A stretch of 36,311 bases of DNA. Origin: Archaeoglobi archaeon (GTDB lineage: Archaea > Halobacteriota > Archaeoglobi > Archaeoglobales > Archaeoglobaceae). Positions 10,157 through 16,533 of the stretch are shown here, one piece after another (position 1 is the first letter of the stretch; every line of letters starts with the position of its first letter). A model generated the notes under the pieces. That model did not search any database. It was not told the origin of the DNA and saw nothing but the letters and a program-made list of their open reading frames with translations. The position numbers were made by a program, and so were the translations under genes. The stretch covers positions 1 to 36,311 of the forward strand of contig JAPDIW010000077.1 in assembly GCA_029259415.1 (NCBI GenBank), written 5' to 3'.

Positions 10157-10664
10157 CAGAAGAATTTTGGTGAGTGATTAAATAATGGTTTTTGTGGTGT
10201 GATTGGTTTTAGGTTTTGGAGGGTAGAGTTAGAGCATTGTAATTCATTTTGAAAAAAAGGGATTTTCTTAGAGAAAGAATCACAATTAGGCTTAAGCAGC
10301 GTGAGATCATCAGAATATGAAATGTAATAGCTCGTTGTAGCGAGGCACCTACTTAAAGGAGGAAGTTTTTGAACTTACCTGTTAAAGTAGTTGTTTACAT
10401 ATAAACATTTTATCACTTGCATTCGGGGGTTCAAACTTTTATGGTAGAGTGGATAAAAGTTATAGATGAGCGGGTGAGGGGGTGGTAGAATGGTACGAGA
10501 AGAGTTATTGAGCTCTACGTGCACGACATCCACCAGCATTGCAAGCAGACTGAGAAAAATTAATATAACTTGGAAATTAAGTATAAACAAGAATGATATC
10601 AAGAATGATATCTTCCAGACGAGGGTTCAAAAAATAAAAGCTTTATACTAAAGAGGTGTGCTTG
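10157..10664. other. Intergenic region of about 500 bases with no firm gene
   Basis: No confident gene. What I see: a quasi-palindrome TGTTTACATATAAACA at 10392-10407; an ORF of 53 codons from ATG 10490 (behind GGTGAGGGGGTGG) to TAA 10651 with no recognisable homology; in another frame ATG 10441 reads 15 codons, meets a TAG at 10486-10488, then reads about 24 more plausible-looking codons (RRVIELYVHDIHQHC); and a tandem 12-mer AAGAATGATATC twice at 10589-10612. The stretch may be decayed coding sequence. The upstream signals of the HD gene should lie at its right end. Confidence 0.4.
10589..10612 (+). repeat. Tandem 12-bp repeat
   Basis: AAGAATGATATC occurs twice head to tail, about 50 bases before the start of the HD gene. 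Each unit contains the GATATC palindrome. It could be an operator or a replication slippage product. Confidence 0.5.
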
Positions 10665-11636
10665 GTGCCGGGCCTAAGTATAAGAGATCCGATACACGGA
10701 TTCGTTCAGCTGCGTAATCACGAGTCGAAGATAATTCAGATGTACCCCTTTCAGAGGCTTCGATTCATACACCAGCTGGGCACAACGAACTGGGTGTACC
10801 CAACCGGTACTCATACTAGGTTCGACCACTCGCTAGGGGTTCTACAGCTTGCCTCACGTGTGATCGACAGATTAAGACTTTTGGGGGTGGAATTTGACGA
10901 AAGTGATGAAGAGGTGTTTAGACTGGCAGCACTCTTGCACGACATCGGTCACACCCCTTTTTCACATATCTCTGAGGAGATGGGTCTTTTCAAAAAGGGG
11001 ATGAATCATGAAAAAATGAGCGCAGAAATAATAAAACGGACGGAGATCGGAGAGATTATTTCGGAAAAGCTCGGAGATAGAGGTGTGGATAGAGTCACGT
11101 TTGTAATTACTGGCGAAGGAATTCCGCATTCTGAGTTGGATAACCTCTTCCACGAGCTGCTTGCTGGTCAGGCAGGTATAGACAGGATGGACTATCTTCT
11201 GAGAGATTCGCACTTCCTAGGGGTTATGTACGGCAGGTACGATATCGAAAGGCTCCTCGAAACACTTAGATTTGAGAGGGAGTCCGAGCACCCGCTTTTC
11301 TGGGAGGAGGGAGGGATTCACGCTTTGGAGCAGTTCTTCCTCGCCAGATACTTTATGTTCACGGAAGTTTACTTCCACAAAACTAGGAGGATCTTGGACT
11401 ACCACCTCGCGATGCTCATTAAGGATTATTTGAAGGATCGGTATGGTACGGGAGAGGATGAAGAAGTCGTCCTACCCTCGGATGTCGAAGAGTATTTAAA
11501 ACTGAACGATTTCGACGTGATGTCTTGGATGCTGAGAACCGATAACGAACACAAGGATGTATTTCTCAAGCGTAAGTTCTTTAGACTGACCATCGAATCG
11601 TCCGACCACCCAAACGAGGATGAACTTGTTCTGTGA
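10665..11636 (+). CDS. HD-domain phosphohydrolase (YwfO/SAMHD1-like), ends at an in-frame TGA
   Basis: An HD-superfamily phosphohydrolase of the dNTPase-like YwfO/EF1143 group. It begins with IRDPIHGFVQL and FQRLRFIHQLGTTNWVYP. The metal site is complete: His in GTHTRFDHSLGV, His-Asp in LAALLHDIGHTPFSH, and Asp in GQAGIDRMDYLLRDS. Related proteins are about 420-430 aa, but this frame stops at TGA 11634-11636 and resumes in the same frame at 11637 with the family's C-terminal domain. GTG 10665 is chosen because GAGGTG lies six bases upstream; GTG 10656 is the longer alternative. dNTP hydrolysis is inferred from the family. Confidence 0.88.
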   Translation: MPGLSIRDPIHGFVQLRNHESKIIQMYPFQRLRFIHQLGTTNWVYPTGTHTRFDHSLGVLQLASRVIDRLRLLGVEFDESDEEVFRLAALLHDIGHTPFSHISEEMGLFKKGMNHEKMSAEIIKRTEIGEIISEKLGDRGVDRVTFVITGEGIPHSELDNLFHELLAGQAGIDRMDYLLRDSHFLGVMYGRYDIERLLETLRFERESEHPLFWEEGGIHALEQFFLARYFMFTEVYFHKTRRILDYHLAMLIKDYLKDRYGTGEDEEVVLPSDVEEYLKLNDFDVMSWMLRTDNEHKDVFLKRKFFRLTIESSDHPNEDELVL

Positions 11637-11915
11637 ATGTGGCTGGAAGATGAGCTTAGAAAAAACTTCGGTGAAGAGAATTTTTATTTAGATGTGGCGG
11701 AAAAGTCTCCTTACAAAGTTGAGAAGGCAGATGTGATGGTGCTTAAGGAAGGGAAGATCGTCCCATTACACGAGGAATCCAAACTCATTGGATCTTTGCG
11801 AACCATAAAAAAGAAGAGGATCTACGCATCGGAAGGAAAACGCGATGAAATAAAAGAATTTGCGAGTAGCTTCCTCGATGAGAGGTGGGAGAAACTTGAA
11901 AGGGAAAAGGTATAG
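11637..11915 (+). CDS. C-terminal domain of the HD protein, separated by an in-frame stop
   Basis: A 92-aa frame that starts directly after the TGA of the HD gene and in the same reading frame. It has the look of the C-terminal domain of YwfO-type proteins: LRKNFGEENFYLDVAEKSPY, then a short beta region with KEGKIVPLHEESKLIGSL and KKKRIYASEG. No ribosome site is well placed before its ATG; GAGGA at 11616 is some 16 bases away. The simplest reading is one gene of about 417 codons broken by a single nonsense codon, or a sequence error. Separate expression by reinitiation on TGAATG is possible. Confidence 0.7.
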   Translation: MWLEDELRKNFGEENFYLDVAEKSPYKVEKADVMVLKEGKIVPLHEESKLIGSLRTIKKKRIYASEGKRDEIKEFASSFLDERWEKLEREKV

Positions 11916-11927
11916 GAGGTGGTGGAG

Positions 11928-12437
11928 TTGAATTCCCTCGACCGTTATGTGACCATTTTGAAATTGCTGAATAATGTGCGTAAGGAAGTGGGTAAGACGT
12001 TTATTCAGAAGGGTGTTTATATCTTGCAGAGTGGCCTCGGAAGGGATCTCGGATATTCATACAAGTTGTACTTCTACGGCCCATTTTCCCAAGAGCTCGC
12101 AAACGATCTTGATACGCTGCACGAGACGGGGCTGATAGATGTGAGATACGATGTTAGGAAAGGTTGGTATAGCATAAAAATTACGGAAAAAGGTAAGATG
12201 TTTTTAGAAAAATTCAAGGAGTTCGGAGCCAGAAATAGTGAAATTGAGGAAGTTCTATCACTTATCGAGGGTAAAGACGCTAGAAAAATGGAGCTTCTAG
12301 GAACGGTACTATACTTCGCCAAGTTAACATCCGACCTAAAAGAAATAAAAAGGCTCGTAAACATCGTCAAGCCACACTTCAACGACCGTGAGATCGAAGA
12401 GGCCCTTATGCTATTGCGGGAGGAGGAACTTGTATAG
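11928..12437 (+). CDS. YwgA/Panacea-like winged-helix protein, partner of the HD gene
   Basis: About 169 aa. The N-terminal half resembles the winged-helix-like fold of YwgA and Panacea (SocA) proteins: IQKGVYILQSGLGRDLGYSY, then KLYFYGPFSQELANDLDTL and ETGLIDVRYD, then a closing YSIKITEKGKMFLEKF wing. The second half is helical. The gene follows the HD fragments by a few bases behind an AGGAGGTGG ribosome site at 11914-11922. TTG 11928 is chosen for spacing; GTG 11919 or 11922 are in frame but too close to that site. In Bacillus, ywfO and ywgA are also neighbours, so I take this as a conserved pair; its function is not known to me. Confidence 0.72.
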   Translation: MNSLDRYVTILKLLNNVRKEVGKTFIQKGVYILQSGLGRDLGYSYKLYFYGPFSQELANDLDTLHETGLIDVRYDVRKGWYSIKITEKGKMFLEKFKEFGARNSEIEEVLSLIEGKDARKMELLGTVLYFAKLTSDLKEIKRLVNIVKPHFNDREIEEALMLLREEELV

Positions 12438-12753
12438 GGCATAATTTTCCGAGTTGATTTTTCTTTTTCTTAATTTTATGAAATTGCCTTTCAACAAAAT
12501 CTTTCCCCTTGGGCGGAGCCTTCTTCATCTCCTCCTCGTAGATTCGCTCCAGTTCCTCGAAGAGTTTCCGGACCCACGTGGAGATGACCTTCGCGTACCT
12601 GCAGAACTTCACGACCCTCTTCTTGTCGAGCCCCTTGGCGAGAAGATAACGCATGAACCTGCCGGCGATGAACTGACCGTTGAACTCAACTTCCCTTGGG
12701 TACTTCTCCCTGATGTTGGTGAGCTCCCTGTCAGGGTTGTAGAACGTTCCCAT
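12406..12753 (-). CDS. Unknown small basic protein
   Basis: A 115-aa protein I do not recognise. It is rich in Lys and Arg, with helical stretches (QFIAGRFMRYLLAKGLDKKR, VIRKLFEELERIYEEEM-like amphipathic pattern) and a Lys-rich run near residue 95. The last ten or so codons overlap the 3' end of the convergent YwgA-like gene by 32 bases. A TATA-like TTTTTTATA (plus-strand 12775-12783) sits 20-30 bases before the ATG. The coding bias in the first 95 residues looks real; the tail after the Lys run (LCPIQVPPPAIA) may not be conserved. Confidence 0.6.
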   Translation of the reverse strand: MGTFYNPDRELTNIREKYPREVEFNGQFIAGRFMRYLLAKGLDKKRVVKFCRYAKVISTWVRKLFEELERIYEEEMKKAPPKGKDFVERQFHKIKKKKNQLGKLCPIQVPPPAIA

Positions 12754-12812
12754 GATCTAGCTTCGTCTGAGAGGTATAAAAAAGGTGTAGGGATTTTACC
12801 CCAGGGTTTTAG

Positions 12813-12908
12813 TCCCGCCTCCCGGATTTGAACCGGGGACCATGGGATCTCCGCCTGCCGCGGAGTAGCGGACTACAGTCCCACGCTCTACCTCTGAGCT
12901 AAGGCGGG
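12813..12908 (-). tRNA. tRNA-Tyr (GTA) with a 24-base intron
   Basis: The minus strand folds as a full cloverleaf. Acceptor CCCGCCT pairs with AGGCGGG and gives the archaeal tRNA-Tyr identity pair C1:G72, with discriminator A73. The D stem is GCTC/GAGC, the anticodon stem TGGGA/TCCCA, and the T arm CCCGG-TTCAAAT-CCGGG. The anticodon GTA is at 12874-12876. Between anticodon-stem halves there are 24 extra bases after position 37, an archaeal intron. The spliced tRNA would be 72 nt. CCA is not encoded. A TATA box is present upstream. Confidence 0.96.
12849..12872 (-). other. tRNA-Tyr intron (canonical position 37/38)
   Basis: Removal of 24 bases between G37 and A38 restores the 7-base anticodon loop CTGTAGA. 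Exon CTGT can pair with intron GCGG (with G-U pairs), leaving three-base bulges AGT and AGA at the two cut sites, which fits a bulge-helix-bulge substrate of the archaeal splicing endonuclease. The intron itself is GC-rich and contains CCGC/GCGG segments that offer alternative pairing. Confidence 0.85.
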
Positions 12909-12943: not shown

Positions 12944-12977
12944 TTGTGCCCTGGTTTAATTGGTGGAGAATTTAGTG

Positions 12978-12987
12978 TCTATATAAG
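12978..12987 (+). promoter_or_regulatory. TATA box of the secreted protein gene
   Basis: TCTATATAAG is a strong box A match about 75 bases before ATG 13057, giving a predicted leader of about 45-50 bases. A GGGGGAG ribosome site lies at 13045-13051. Confidence 0.55.
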
Positions 12988-13056
12988 TCTACGAAAAAGT
13001 TAAATTTGATGTTGTGATAATAGTTAGAATAGTGAGCATAAATTGGGGGAGTTTAT

Positions 13057-13404
13057 ATGGGTATTCTAAATAAGGCAAAAATTTCCAAGATTGAGTGGAA
13101 AACTGCACTATTGCTGATTGTAGTTTTATTAACCATCCAAACTGCGGCAGCTAGTTGCCCGACAGAAGTGTATGTTAAAAACCATTTAGCAGATCAAGTT
13201 CACGTGAAAGTATACAAAGATAGATCGTTAATCAAGACGCTATATTTGGATCCGGGAGAAAATATCTTTGTTGACAGGGTTGAGCTTGAAAGTGATTCTG
13301 GTGTACAGTATTACGTGTATTGGGAGGCAAATGATGGTATTGTTCATAAAACTGGTCGTTATATAAGAGGGTGCATATATCAGCAACAAACGGTAAGCAG
13401 ATAG
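13057..13404 (+). CDS. Signal-peptide start and first beta domain of a secreted repeat protein (frame 1 part)
   Basis: A 115-aa frame with a Sec signal: a basic start (MGILNKAKISKIEWK), the hydrophobic stretch TALLLIVVLLTIQTAAA (residues 16-32), then Ser-Cys. The mature part has VYVKNHLADQVHVKVYKD, LDPGENIFVDRVEL and YYVYWEANDG. This is the same beta-domain pattern (VxNxxxDxVxVxxYxD ... PGE ... W..xD) as the repeats of the next frame. It ends at 13404, overlapping the following ORF by 34 bases in another frame. I infer that both frames belong to one gene broken by a frameshift near 13370-13404. ATG 13057 has a clear ribosome site. Confidence 0.8.
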   Translation: MGILNKAKISKIEWKTALLLIVVLLTIQTAAASCPTEVYVKNHLADQVHVKVYKDRSLIKTLYLDPGENIFVDRVELESDSGVQYYVYWEANDGIVHKTGRYIRGCIYQQQTVSR

Positions 13405-16400
13405 AAACTCACCTGAGATCTTATGATGTTGAGGGAGTGGCTGGAGAGCAGATTCAGTTGAAATGTTATTTGAGAACGGATGATTCAGAGAAGTTGCCCG
13501 GAAAACTTGTTAAGTTTTATCTTAAAGAAGGATCTCTGTACAGGAAAATTGGTGAATCAAGAACCGACAGCTCTGGGTATGCAAAAGTATATTACACATT
13601 TTCGAATCCCGGAGAGTATTACTTCTACTGTAAGTTTGATGGTGACAGTGTTTACAAAGATGATAAAACCTCTAACAAGAGGATTACGGTAAAAGGCACC
13701 ACACAATATGTTGTAAAAGTTAAAGTTAGGAACAATGATGATGACACATTACATGGTGTGGATCTGTACATAGATGGTAATTTTAAGATAGGTATAGGAC
13801 CTGTTAATCCGGGTAGTTTGGCTGAATTCGGGATTTACAAGCTATCGGAAGGTGAACACGTATTTAAGATAAAGTGGTATGATCCTGATACCAAACAAAA
13901 TTATGAGAAAAATATACGCGTAAACATTTTGGGAGATGCCGTAGTAACACTCTCCATTGACAAACATGGTGAAGAAAATTTTAAGATTAAAGTTCAGATT
14001 TTGAACAGTGATGATGACAAAGTTAATGTACTGTTGTACATTGACAGTAACTTGGTTTGGAGAGGAGACATTGCCCCTGATGAGACATCTCGTTTTGGAG
14101 AGCATAGTTTAATGAAAGGCAAACACAAGTTCATGATAGAATGGTACGATTCTGATACGAAGAGGTACTATCAGAAGGTGTACTGGAAAGATATTTCTCA
14201 AGAAATGACAATTACATTAAATACTGAAAAACACGAGTCCACATATGCTGTAAAGGTTCGAGTTAAGAATTATGACGATGACGGGTTGAGTGTCAAGTTG
14301 TATATAGATGGAAAATATGAAGGAAGTTTAAGTGTATTATGGGATAAATCAGTTGAATTTGGGCCATATAAACTGTCAAAAGGATACCATACATTCAAGA
14401 TCACATGGACAGACCCGGATGTGGGAAGTGGAGAGCTTCAAAAGAGAATCTATGTTTCGAGTGACACAACCATTAATTTCGAGATAGATAAACCGTCTTC
14501 TGGAAAACCTGACCTTATTTTAGAAGACATTTCCGCTCCATCTACAGCTTATGCCGGTAAAGGTGTTAAAGTTACGTTCAAAGTTAAAAATCAGGGAGAT
14601 GGCGATTCAAGACTCTTTGTAGTTAAGGCTTACTTATCTAAGAGTCCAGGAACTCGTTTCGACTACTACCTCAATTGCTATGCAACTGTTGATGAATTGA
14701 AAGCAGGAGCAAGCGTGTATGCATCACCACCGGTGTACTGTACAATCCCAGGCTCAATCTCTCCGGGAACTTACTATCTGATTGGATATGTTGATGCAAA
14801 TAGGTATGTTGAGGAGTCCAATGAGCAGAACAATATAAAGTATAAGAAGATAGAGATATTAACAACGGAGCCAACTACACCAGCCATTACAACAACCACT
14901 CCAAAACCAACACCAACCACGACGACGGCAGTAACAACAACGACAGTGGTAACAACTCCAACCAAAAAGTATACTGTGAAAATAGGGGTTTTGAACAAAG
15001 ATGATGACAAATTATGGGTTGAACTTTACATAGATGGTGTATACCAGTGGACGGAAAGCATTGAGGCTGGTAAAACAGTATATTGGGAAAATTTTGAACT
15101 AAAGGAGGGATATCACACGTTCAAGATAAGATGGTATGATTATGATACAAGAGAATACTATCCAAAAGAAAAGGAAGTGAAAATTTCGGACGATGTGACA
15201 GTTACTCTTGAGACTGAGAGGCATGCTGAGAATCAACAGAATTTAGATGAAAATACAAGAGAGTTACTATTAACACTCAAAAAAACTTTAGAAGTTGGAA
15301 GGGAGATCTATGAAGACACCGAACAAGCGAGGAAATTTGCAGAGTATATTATATTAATAGATGAAGCGTTGGACACAGGAGTAGTACCTGAAGAACTGAA
15401 GGGTTTTATGGATGACATCAATCTTTTTGGAGATCTGATAAAGTCTGGAGACATAGTCATGAAATTGAACAGTGATAATCCAAGTGACAGATTGGAAGGA
15501 TACGTGGATACATACGCATTCTTAGCAGAGAAAGCACCAGATTTGGCAAAACTTCTTCTTGGCTTGAGTGGTGCTGAGGGAGCCGTTGTCAGTGTCATTA
15601 CACTTCCAGCAACGGTAGCAACAACTGGATATCTTGAACTGGCTAAGGGTATAGTGTTAGAAACAATGGACTGGCATCAGTATGTTAGAAAATACATGGA
15701 TTGTTATAACTGTATACACCATGGTTTCAAAGGTTATCTTGAGGGGCTAATTAAAGGAAACAAACCAGACGACCCAAGGCTATCTATGTGTAATGATTGT
15801 TACGATAATATACAAAAGGATCCAAACGTTAAAGAATACGTTCAAGGGTTGACGATCCTAGAATCTGGGGAGAAATTTTTAATAAAGTATTCAGAAAATG
15901 ATGTACCTCTAACAATATCTGTTAAATCTGATGAGAACAAGATATACATTGCTTATTCTACAGCAGACTTTTTCGAGGTAATAGGTAAGATTTCAGAAAC
16001 AGGTCACCCATACAATCCTCCTATAAATAGTCTGGAGATTAGAATTAAAGGAGGATATACAGAGAATGGCAATAAAATGCTATTTAGCGATGATAAAAGA
16101 AGATTGGTTTACTACGACACCAATGCACGAAAATTAGCAATAAGATCATTGGAACTCCCTAAAAGCCAATACATCAAAAATACTGAGGACCCGATTCTCT
16201 ACATCAAGTTGAGGTGGAGCGATGAAAGAGGCGAACATGAAGGATTGTGGAAAATTGATACAAAATTTGGCCGTGTTGAAAATGAGTATGTCAAAGATGT
16301 AGCATTCCACGATAATGTAAATGATTTTGTTAGTGGAGCAGTTAACACAGTTGTAGAAACTGGAAGGTCTATTGGAAACGCAATTGGTGCAGCAGTTAAC

Positions 16401-16463
16401 ACAGTTGTTGAAATCGGAGAGTCAATTGGTGAAGCAATTGGTGGATTTTTCAAAGGTTTCTGA
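13371..16463 (+). CDS. Large secreted multidomain repeat protein (Ig-like, four unnamed beta repeats, CARDB, Thr/Pro linker)
   Basis: A 1030-aa frame with no signal peptide of its own and a GTG start without a usable ribosome site. Domains: Ig-like 10-108; three related beta repeats 113-198, 203-288 and 291-373 (VKVRNNDDD...LYIDG...FGxYKLSxGxHxFKIxWYDxDTK); a CARDB domain 378-497 ending ANRYVEESNEQNN; a Thr/Pro-rich linker 498-532 that is a likely glycosylated spacer; a fourth repeat 533-618; and a C-terminal helical region with two CxxC pairs (778/781, 807/810) and a glycine-zipper-like tail. It is AT-rich compared with its neighbours. The function is unknown; a surface or cell-envelope role is inferred from the domains. 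Confidence 0.85.
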   Translation: MHISATNGKQIETHLRSYDVEGVAGEQIQLKCYLRTDDSEKLPGKLVKFYLKEGSLYRKIGESRTDSSGYAKVYYTFSNPGEYYFYCKFDGDSVYKDDKTSNKRITVKGTTQYVVKVKVRNNDDDTLHGVDLYIDGNFKIGIGPVNPGSLAEFGIYKLSEGEHVFKIKWYDPDTKQNYEKNIRVNILGDAVVTLSIDKHGEENFKIKVQILNSDDDKVNVLLYIDSNLVWRGDIAPDETSRFGEHSLMKGKHKFMIEWYDSDTKRYYQKVYWKDISQEMTITLNTEKHESTYAVKVRVKNYDDDGLSVKLYIDGKYEGSLSVLWDKSVEFGPYKLSKGYHTFKITWTDPDVGSGELQKRIYVSSDTTINFEIDKPSSGKPDLILEDISAPSTAYAGKGVKVTFKVKNQGDGDSRLFVVKAYLSKSPGTRFDYYLNCYATVDELKAGASVYASPPVYCTIPGSISPGTYYLIGYVDANRYVEESNEQNNIKYKKIEILTTEPTTPAITTTTPKPTPTTTTAVTTTTVVTTPTKKYTVKIGVLNKDDDKLWVELYIDGVYQWTESIEAGKTVYWENFELKEGYHTFKIRWYDYDTREYYPKEKEVKISDDVTVTLETERHAENQQNLDENTRELLLTLKKTLEVGREIYEDTEQARKFAEYIILIDEALDTGVVPEELKGFMDDINLFGDLIKSGDIVMKLNSDNPSDRLEGYVDTYAFLAEKAPDLAKLLLGLSGAEGAVVSVITLPATVATTGYLELAKGIVLETMDWHQYVRKYMDCYNCIHHGFKGYLEGLIKGNKPDDPRLSMCNDCYDNIQKDPNVKEYVQGLTILESGEKFLIKYSENDVPLTISVKSDENKIYIAYSTADFFEVIGKISETGHPYNPPINSLEIRIKGGYTENGNKMLFSDDKRRLVYYDTNARKLAIRSLELPKSQYIKNTEDPILYIKLRWSDERGEHEGLWKIDTKFGRVENEYVKDVAFHDNVNDFVSGAVNTVVETGRSIGNAIGAAVNTVVEIGESIGEAIGGFFKGF
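16338..16445 (+). repeat. Two 54-bp tandem units at the 3' end of the secreted protein gene
   Basis: Units begin at 16338 and 16392 with the same GCAGTTAACACAGTTGT. They encode AVNTVVETGRSIGNAIGA and AVNTVVEIGESIGEAIGG, 18 residues each, with Gly and small residues spaced to form an amphipathic or glycine-zipper helix. Confidence 0.85.
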
Positions 16464-16502
16464 ACGTAATCACATGAGTAATCAAGCTTAAACATAACCA
16501 AA

Positions 16503-16514
16503 CTTTTTTAAAAC
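16503..16514 (+). promoter_or_regulatory. TATA box of leuC, leaderless spacing
   Basis: CTTTTTTAAAAC is centred about 25 bases before the leuC ATG, so transcription should begin at or next to the start codon. Confidence 0.5.
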
Positions 16515-16533
16515 TCTCTGAATCCCCAGATAC

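What the first reader, a model, noticed from the sequence alone, without database searches (positions are those of the whole stretch)
10665..11915. HD phosphohydrolase gene split by a single in-frame TGA
Seen: the HD ORF ends at TGA 11634-11636 and the next ORF starts at 11637 in the same frame with what looks like the missing C-terminal domain. Joined, the protein would be about 417 residues, close to YwfO-type proteins. Either this is a recent nonsense mutation or sequencing error, or the product is made as two chains or by readthrough. The metal site is intact in the first part, so even the short form could be active.
Basis: partly seen in the sequence, partly recalled or inferred. Interest (0 to 1): 0.6.

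Follow-up and report, generated by a model that had tools for sequence, protein, structure and literature searches.

The report
Broken SAMHD1-like gene in two-gene module
A stop codon cuts a SAMHD1-like nucleotide-hydrolase gene that sits next to an antitoxin-like gene; the stop itself is an ordinary inactivating mutation, but the gene pair is a conserved, apparently mobile toxin-antitoxin-like module whose enzyme half is broken again and again in related archaea while the partner half stays intact.

Summary
An in-frame TGA (11634-11636) interrupts a 416-codon HD gene; 92 open codons follow. The two closest homologues (Aminicenantes, Deltaproteobacteria) read through with TGG (Trp) there. Pfam HD_assoc_2 spans the stop, which falls inside a helix of a confident AlphaFold model. 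TGA is the genome's commonest stop and no tRNA-Sec passes its cut-off, so readthrough is unlikely. The 3' part still shows purifying selection: the mutation is recent, or an assembly error, which I cannot exclude.

The context is more interesting. This is not the housekeeping HD gene (intact on another contig). It is the SAMHD1-like half of a two-gene module with a small winged-helix protein related to the SocA/Panacea antitoxin domain and to DarG's C-terminal, DarT-binding part. The pair recurs in about 20 archaeal loci and in bacteria, and here is an insertion beside tRNA-Tyr that a congener lacks. In this family the module HD gene is broken in 5 of 7 copies by different lesions, against 0 of 45 housekeeping HD genes; all six partners found are intact. 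I read it as a candidate toxin-antitoxin or defence pair whose toxin is being shed. Toxicity is untested.

The parts
10665..11636 (+). 5' part of the split SAMHD1-like HD gene (323 aa), with HD metal-site motifs H55, H92-D93, H115-E116, D173-R174 invariant in 16 module homologues
11634..11636 (+). in-frame TGA; Trp (TGG) in the two closest homologues; lies inside helix 318-335 of the model
11637..11915 (+). 3' part of the same gene (92 codons, end of HD_assoc_2 region), still open and evolving under constraint
11928..12437 (+). partner gene, small winged-helix protein related to SocA_Panacea and the DarG C-terminal domain; likely start TTG 11928 (aligns with ATG starts of relatives and has GGAGGTG upstream), longest ORF from GTG 11919
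10196..12773 (.). stretch carrying the module, absent from the collinear site of congener G004
12813..12908 (-). tRNA-Tyr(GTA) gene with 24-nt intron, next to the inserted stretch

Best explanation
A recent single-base nonsense change at a Trp codon has interrupted, and probably inactivated, a SAMHD1-like HD hydrolase gene. The gene is not core metabolism but the effector half of a mobile two-gene module whose second gene encodes a small winged-helix protein of the SocA-Panacea / DarG-C-terminal kind. Shown: the interruption, the uninterrupted homologues, the recurrent pairing, the sequence and fold relations, the insertion beside a tRNA gene, and repeated breakage of the HD half in relatives. 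Inferred: that the HD protein degrades dNTPs and is toxic or defensive when unrestrained, that the partner binds and restrains it as a type II antitoxin (as DarG does with DarT), and that hosts lose the enzyme first because losing the antitoxin first would be harmful.
For: TGG at the site in both closest homologues. HD_assoc_2 spans the stop. No acceleration of the 3' part: unique changes 13 in the window versus 15 and 11 in the homologues, dN far below dS. TGA ends 179 of 365 coding-like ORFs; no tRNA-Sec over cut-off. Full-length profile and fold match to SAMHD1-like enzymes. Partner matches SocA_Panacea, DarG and the DarTG complex structure 7yk3. Pairing in about 20 archaeal and three bacterial loci. 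Module HD broken in 5 of 7 family copies versus 0 of 45 housekeeping HDs (Fisher p=9e-6, computed with 44), partners 6 of 6 intact.
Against: The genome is a draft in 104 contigs and no reads were available, so the stop could be an assembly error. The window partner itself is below the Pfam Panacea cut-off; the link runs through its relatives. No direct evidence of toxicity, dNTP hydrolysis or binding. Breakage of HD only may reflect its greater length, and partners were found by homology (ascertainment); HD against partner gives only p=0.02. Two of the five broken copies lie at contig starts.
Confidence: 0.62

Rival explanations
1. Sequencing or assembly error: the gene is intact in the organism and the module is complete.
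For: Draft genome in 104 contigs; the 3' part shows no decay; a one-base difference explains everything.
Against: Other module copies in the family are broken by unmistakable means such as mobile-element insertion, so loss is common in this gene; a lone substitution is less usual as an assembly error than an indel (general knowledge).
Confidence: 0.15
2. Functional split gene: translation restarts at ATG 11637, directly after the TGA, and the two chains assemble into a working enzyme.
For: An ATG follows the stop at once where the two homologues have Lys or Glu codons; the 3' part remains constrained.
Against: No Shine-Dalgarno sequence at normal distance from 11637 (sequence); the cut lies inside a helix; no relative uses two chains without an evident lesion.
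Confidence: 0.13
3. TGA readthrough or recoding (Trp or Sec) gives the full-length protein.
For: The homologues have Trp at this position.
Against: TGA is the commonest terminator in the genome, no tRNA-Sec over cut-off, and other same-frame neighbours across TGA look like separate genes.
Confidence: 0.03
4. The gene pair is an enzyme with its transcriptional regulator, not a toxin with its antitoxin; the HD gene breaks because it is accessory and long.
For: The partner has a winged-helix fold with weak matches to MarR/PadR regulators; accessory genes decay, and the HD gene is the larger target.
Against: The best sequence and fold matches are to antitoxins; the breaks found in pairs lie in HD and none in the partner.
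Confidence: 0.3

Closest known systems
SAMHD1 and bacterial SAMHD1-like HD proteins (PDB 2hek Aquifex; 2o6i/3irh/4lrl Enterococcus faecalis; YwfO type)
   Same: HD domain plus HD_assoc region; whole-length profile match (SAMHD1 E about 1e-52) and fold match (2hek TM 0.81)
   Different: Interrupted here; paired with an antitoxin-like gene; substrate untested
SocA/Panacea (DUF4065) antitoxin systems (PMC8832971)
   Same: Small antitoxin-like protein encoded next to an enzyme gene; 10 of 21 partner proteins match the Panacea model
   Different: The window protein itself is below the Pfam cut-off; an HD enzyme is not named as a toxin in the main text of that paper or of PMC10440598 (supplements not read)
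DarTG (C-terminal domain of DarG)
   Same: The partner family matches the C-terminal part of DarG and the DarG chain of the DarTG complex 7yk3 by sequence and fold
   Different: No macrodomain and no DarT; the neighbour is an HD enzyme
Clover (CloA dNTPase with CloB nucleotidyltransferase; PMC12265719)
   Same: A two-gene system with an HD dNTPase that is toxic without its partner
   Different: CloB makes an inhibitory nucleotide; here the partner is a winged-helix antitoxin-like protein, so direct binding is proposed

Membership tests
SAMHD1-like HD hydrolase | HD metal-binding motif residues conserved | tested here: met
   invariant in 16 module homologues and present in the window's 5' part
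SAMHD1-like HD hydrolase | full HD plus HD-associated C-terminal region in one chain | tested here: not met
   the window gene is interrupted by TGA; met in intact homologues
SAMHD1-like HD hydrolase | dNTP triphosphohydrolase activity | not testable with these tools
   needs an enzyme assay
SocA/Panacea antitoxin | match to the Panacea domain above the curated cut-off | tested here: inconclusive
   one HD-linked relative (G028) is over the cut-off and 10 of 21 match at E<=1; the window protein does not
DarTG antitoxin DarG | DarG-type C-terminal toxin-binding domain | tested here: met
   PADLOC DarG 9e-14 over its C-terminal part; fold match to 7yk3 E=6.5e-6
DarTG antitoxin DarG | macrodomain and adjacent DarT | tested here: not met
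   169-aa protein with only the C-terminal part; neighbour is HD
Type II toxin-antitoxin system | conserved two-gene pairing | tested here: met
   about 20 archaeal and three bacterial loci
Type II toxin-antitoxin system | toxicity of one product, neutralised by the other | not testable with these tools
   needs expression experiments
Clover | nucleotidyltransferase partner | tested here: not met
   partner is a winged-helix protein
TGA recoding (Trp or Sec) | TGA rare as a terminator, or a decoding tRNA present | tested here: not met
   TGA is the commonest stop (179 of 365); no tRNA-Sec over cut-off; a Trp tRNA reading TGA was not specifically sought

The most novel reading that the evidence does not exclude
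SAMHD1-like HD hydrolase plus a DarG-C-terminal/Panacea-like winged-helix protein is an undescribed toxin-antitoxin or anti-virus system shared by archaea and bacteria, in which the dNTPase is held off by direct binding, and hosts repeatedly disarm it by breaking the enzyme while keeping the antitoxin.
Probability: 0.4. Interest if true: 0.7.

Novelty: new variant of a known kind. Interest (0 to 1): 0.42.

Why it matters
The stop codon alone is a routine pseudogene-type lesion. The setting is more useful: it points to a two-gene unit joining the SAMHD1 fold to an antitoxin fold known from DarTG and Panacea, with a natural experiment (repeated enzyme loss with the partner kept) that predicts which half is toxic. 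If true it would extend dNTP-depleting immunity to archaea with a mode of restraint different from Clover's nucleotide signal.

Tried and rejected
Readthrough/recoding: rejected on stop usage and lack of tRNA-Sec. Two separate genes: rejected because homologues and HD_assoc_2 span the stop. Housekeeping identity (YwfO-like core gene): rejected, the core copy is on C44 and intact, and the module copies form a separate group. Phage or plasmid cargo: no close copy, only low-identity matches (42% or less in most listed rows) that mostly cover the generic HD region, and no viral contig hit. PADLOC gives only a generic dGTPase match for HD and DarG/PDC-M19A for the partner, so no described system fits as a whole. 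Paper searches for HD with Panacea or DarG found nothing. The tree's housekeeping group has only seven rows because my script picked few of them, and L044 lies on a long branch.

Full report
OBSERVATION. The HD frame from GTG 10665 ends at TGA 11634-11636 and resumes at once with ATG 11637, running 92 codons to TAG 11913-11915. Read through it is 416 residues. Pfam HD_assoc_2 matches on both sides of the stop and is nearly complete only in the read-through protein.

HOMOLOGUES. The two closest relatives, in an Aminicenantes MAG (L031) and a Deltaproteobacteria MAG (L032), have one open frame of about 402 codons. At the stop position both carry TGG, in the context VILWKWLE / IVIWEWLE against LVL*MWLE. 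More distant module homologues have other residues there but also read through. The 3' part of the window gene has changed no faster than theirs: unique substitutions 13 versus 15 and 11 of 85; dN 0.47-0.49 in all three pairs, dS much higher. So either the stop is recent, or the 3' part is still used, or the base is wrong in the assembly.

READTHROUGH IS UNLIKELY. In a 436-kb sample TGA ends 179 of 365 coding-like ORFs, and no tRNA-Sec candidate exceeds the family cut-off. A two-chain product by restart at the adjacent ATG cannot be excluded, but there is no ribosome-binding site at normal distance (sequence) and the cut lies inside helix 318-335 of a model with mean pLDDT 92.6. That is not where a natural domain split would be expected.

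WHICH GENE IT IS. The genome has a second HD gene on contig C44, an intact ORF, and most relatives have that copy. The window gene is in a different group: in the tree the module HDs separate from the housekeeping ones, and the window copy groups with the two bacterial sequences with full support, which indicates horizontal transfer. In a congener with a single-contig genome (G004) the flanks are collinear, but the 2.6-kb stretch 10196-12773 is absent and 520 bp of other sequence stands there. A tRNA-Tyr(GTA) gene with a 24-nt intron lies beside it at 12813-12908 on the minus strand.

THE MODULE. The next gene (11928-12437) has relatives next to an HD gene of this group in about 20 archaeal loci and three bacterial ones, in several with overlapping ends. 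Its relatives match the SocA_Panacea antitoxin model (10 of 21, best 3.4e-8; one over the curated cut-off) and all match DarG in PADLOC; in the window protein the match is to DarG's C-terminal part. A profile of the family finds the DarG chain of the DarTG crystal structure 7yk3 (E=1.6e-6), and the AlphaFold model (pLDDT 95.8) has 7yk3 as its best fold match, E=6.5e-6. The HD protein matches SAMHD1 and SAMHD1-like enzymes over its whole length by sequence profile and fold. Among known systems, Clover has an HD dNTPase that is toxic without its partner, but that partner works by a nucleotide signal (PMC12265719). Panacea antitoxins pair with many toxins (PMC8832971); 'HD domain' does not occur in the main text of that paper or of PMC10440598.

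REPEATED BREAKAGE. In 55 genomes of the family, seven module HD genes are seen: two intact (G317, G011 first copy) and five broken. The five are the window (nonsense); G011 second copy (a transposase-like gene between N- and C-part); G022 (N-part replaced by sequence recurring beside a transposase-like gene elsewhere in that genome); G167 (N-part replaced by sequence 79% like part of that same transposase gene, at a contig start); and G007 (frameshift, altered HD motif, lost C-part, no close partner). Outside the family three of fifteen module HDs carry frameshifts (G140, G303, G378). Of 45 housekeeping HD genes in the family none is interrupted (my count); Fisher p = 9e-6, computed with 44. 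All six close partners found in the family are intact. HD broken versus partner broken gives p = 0.02, with an ascertainment caveat, since partners were found by homology and some HD lesions lie at contig ends. This pattern is what a toxin-antitoxin pair would show, because the toxin must go first; it also fits simple loss of a dispensable longer gene.

VERDICT. The finding as given is correct but ordinary: a nonsense mutation (or one-base error). The surrounding module is the part worth keeping: a candidate SAMHD1-like toxin with a DarG/Panacea-like antitoxin. Toxicity, dNTPase activity and binding are all untested.

Noticed in passing
12813-12908 (-): tRNA-Tyr(GTA) gene with a 24-nt intron in the anticodon loop; missed by the default ARAGORN scan, found by Rfam and by ARAGORN with introns allowed.
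   Followed up: yes
12950-16532: A second stretch absent from the collinear region of congener G004; it holds a 1030-aa protein with CARDB and Ig-like domains.
   Followed up: no
L189:7524-7808 (-): In congener G004 the site where the module sits in the window holds a short ORF that by eye resembles a PIN-domain (VapC-like) protein; the tRNA-side site may be a hotspot for toxin-antitoxin genes.
   Followed up: no
L075 2518-3414 and L076 1-126: Mobile-element sequence is found in module HD genes of G011 and G022 (and G167), each time near the junction to the C-terminal part; the elements in G011 and G022 look different.
   Followed up: partly
L079 1025-2296: In G140 the module lies near a C-5 cytosine DNA methylase gene, and in G303 (L080) near a gene that by eye resembles a type I restriction methylase: possible defence islands.
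   Followed up: partly
10588-10611: Perfect tandem repeat CAAGAATGATAT x2 about 50 bp upstream of the HD start; could be an operator.
   Followed up: no
L084 4034-4555 (G000:C57): The same genome holds a second, distant partner-like gene on contig C57 with a sub-threshold Panacea match; no HD gene was reported there.
   Followed up: no
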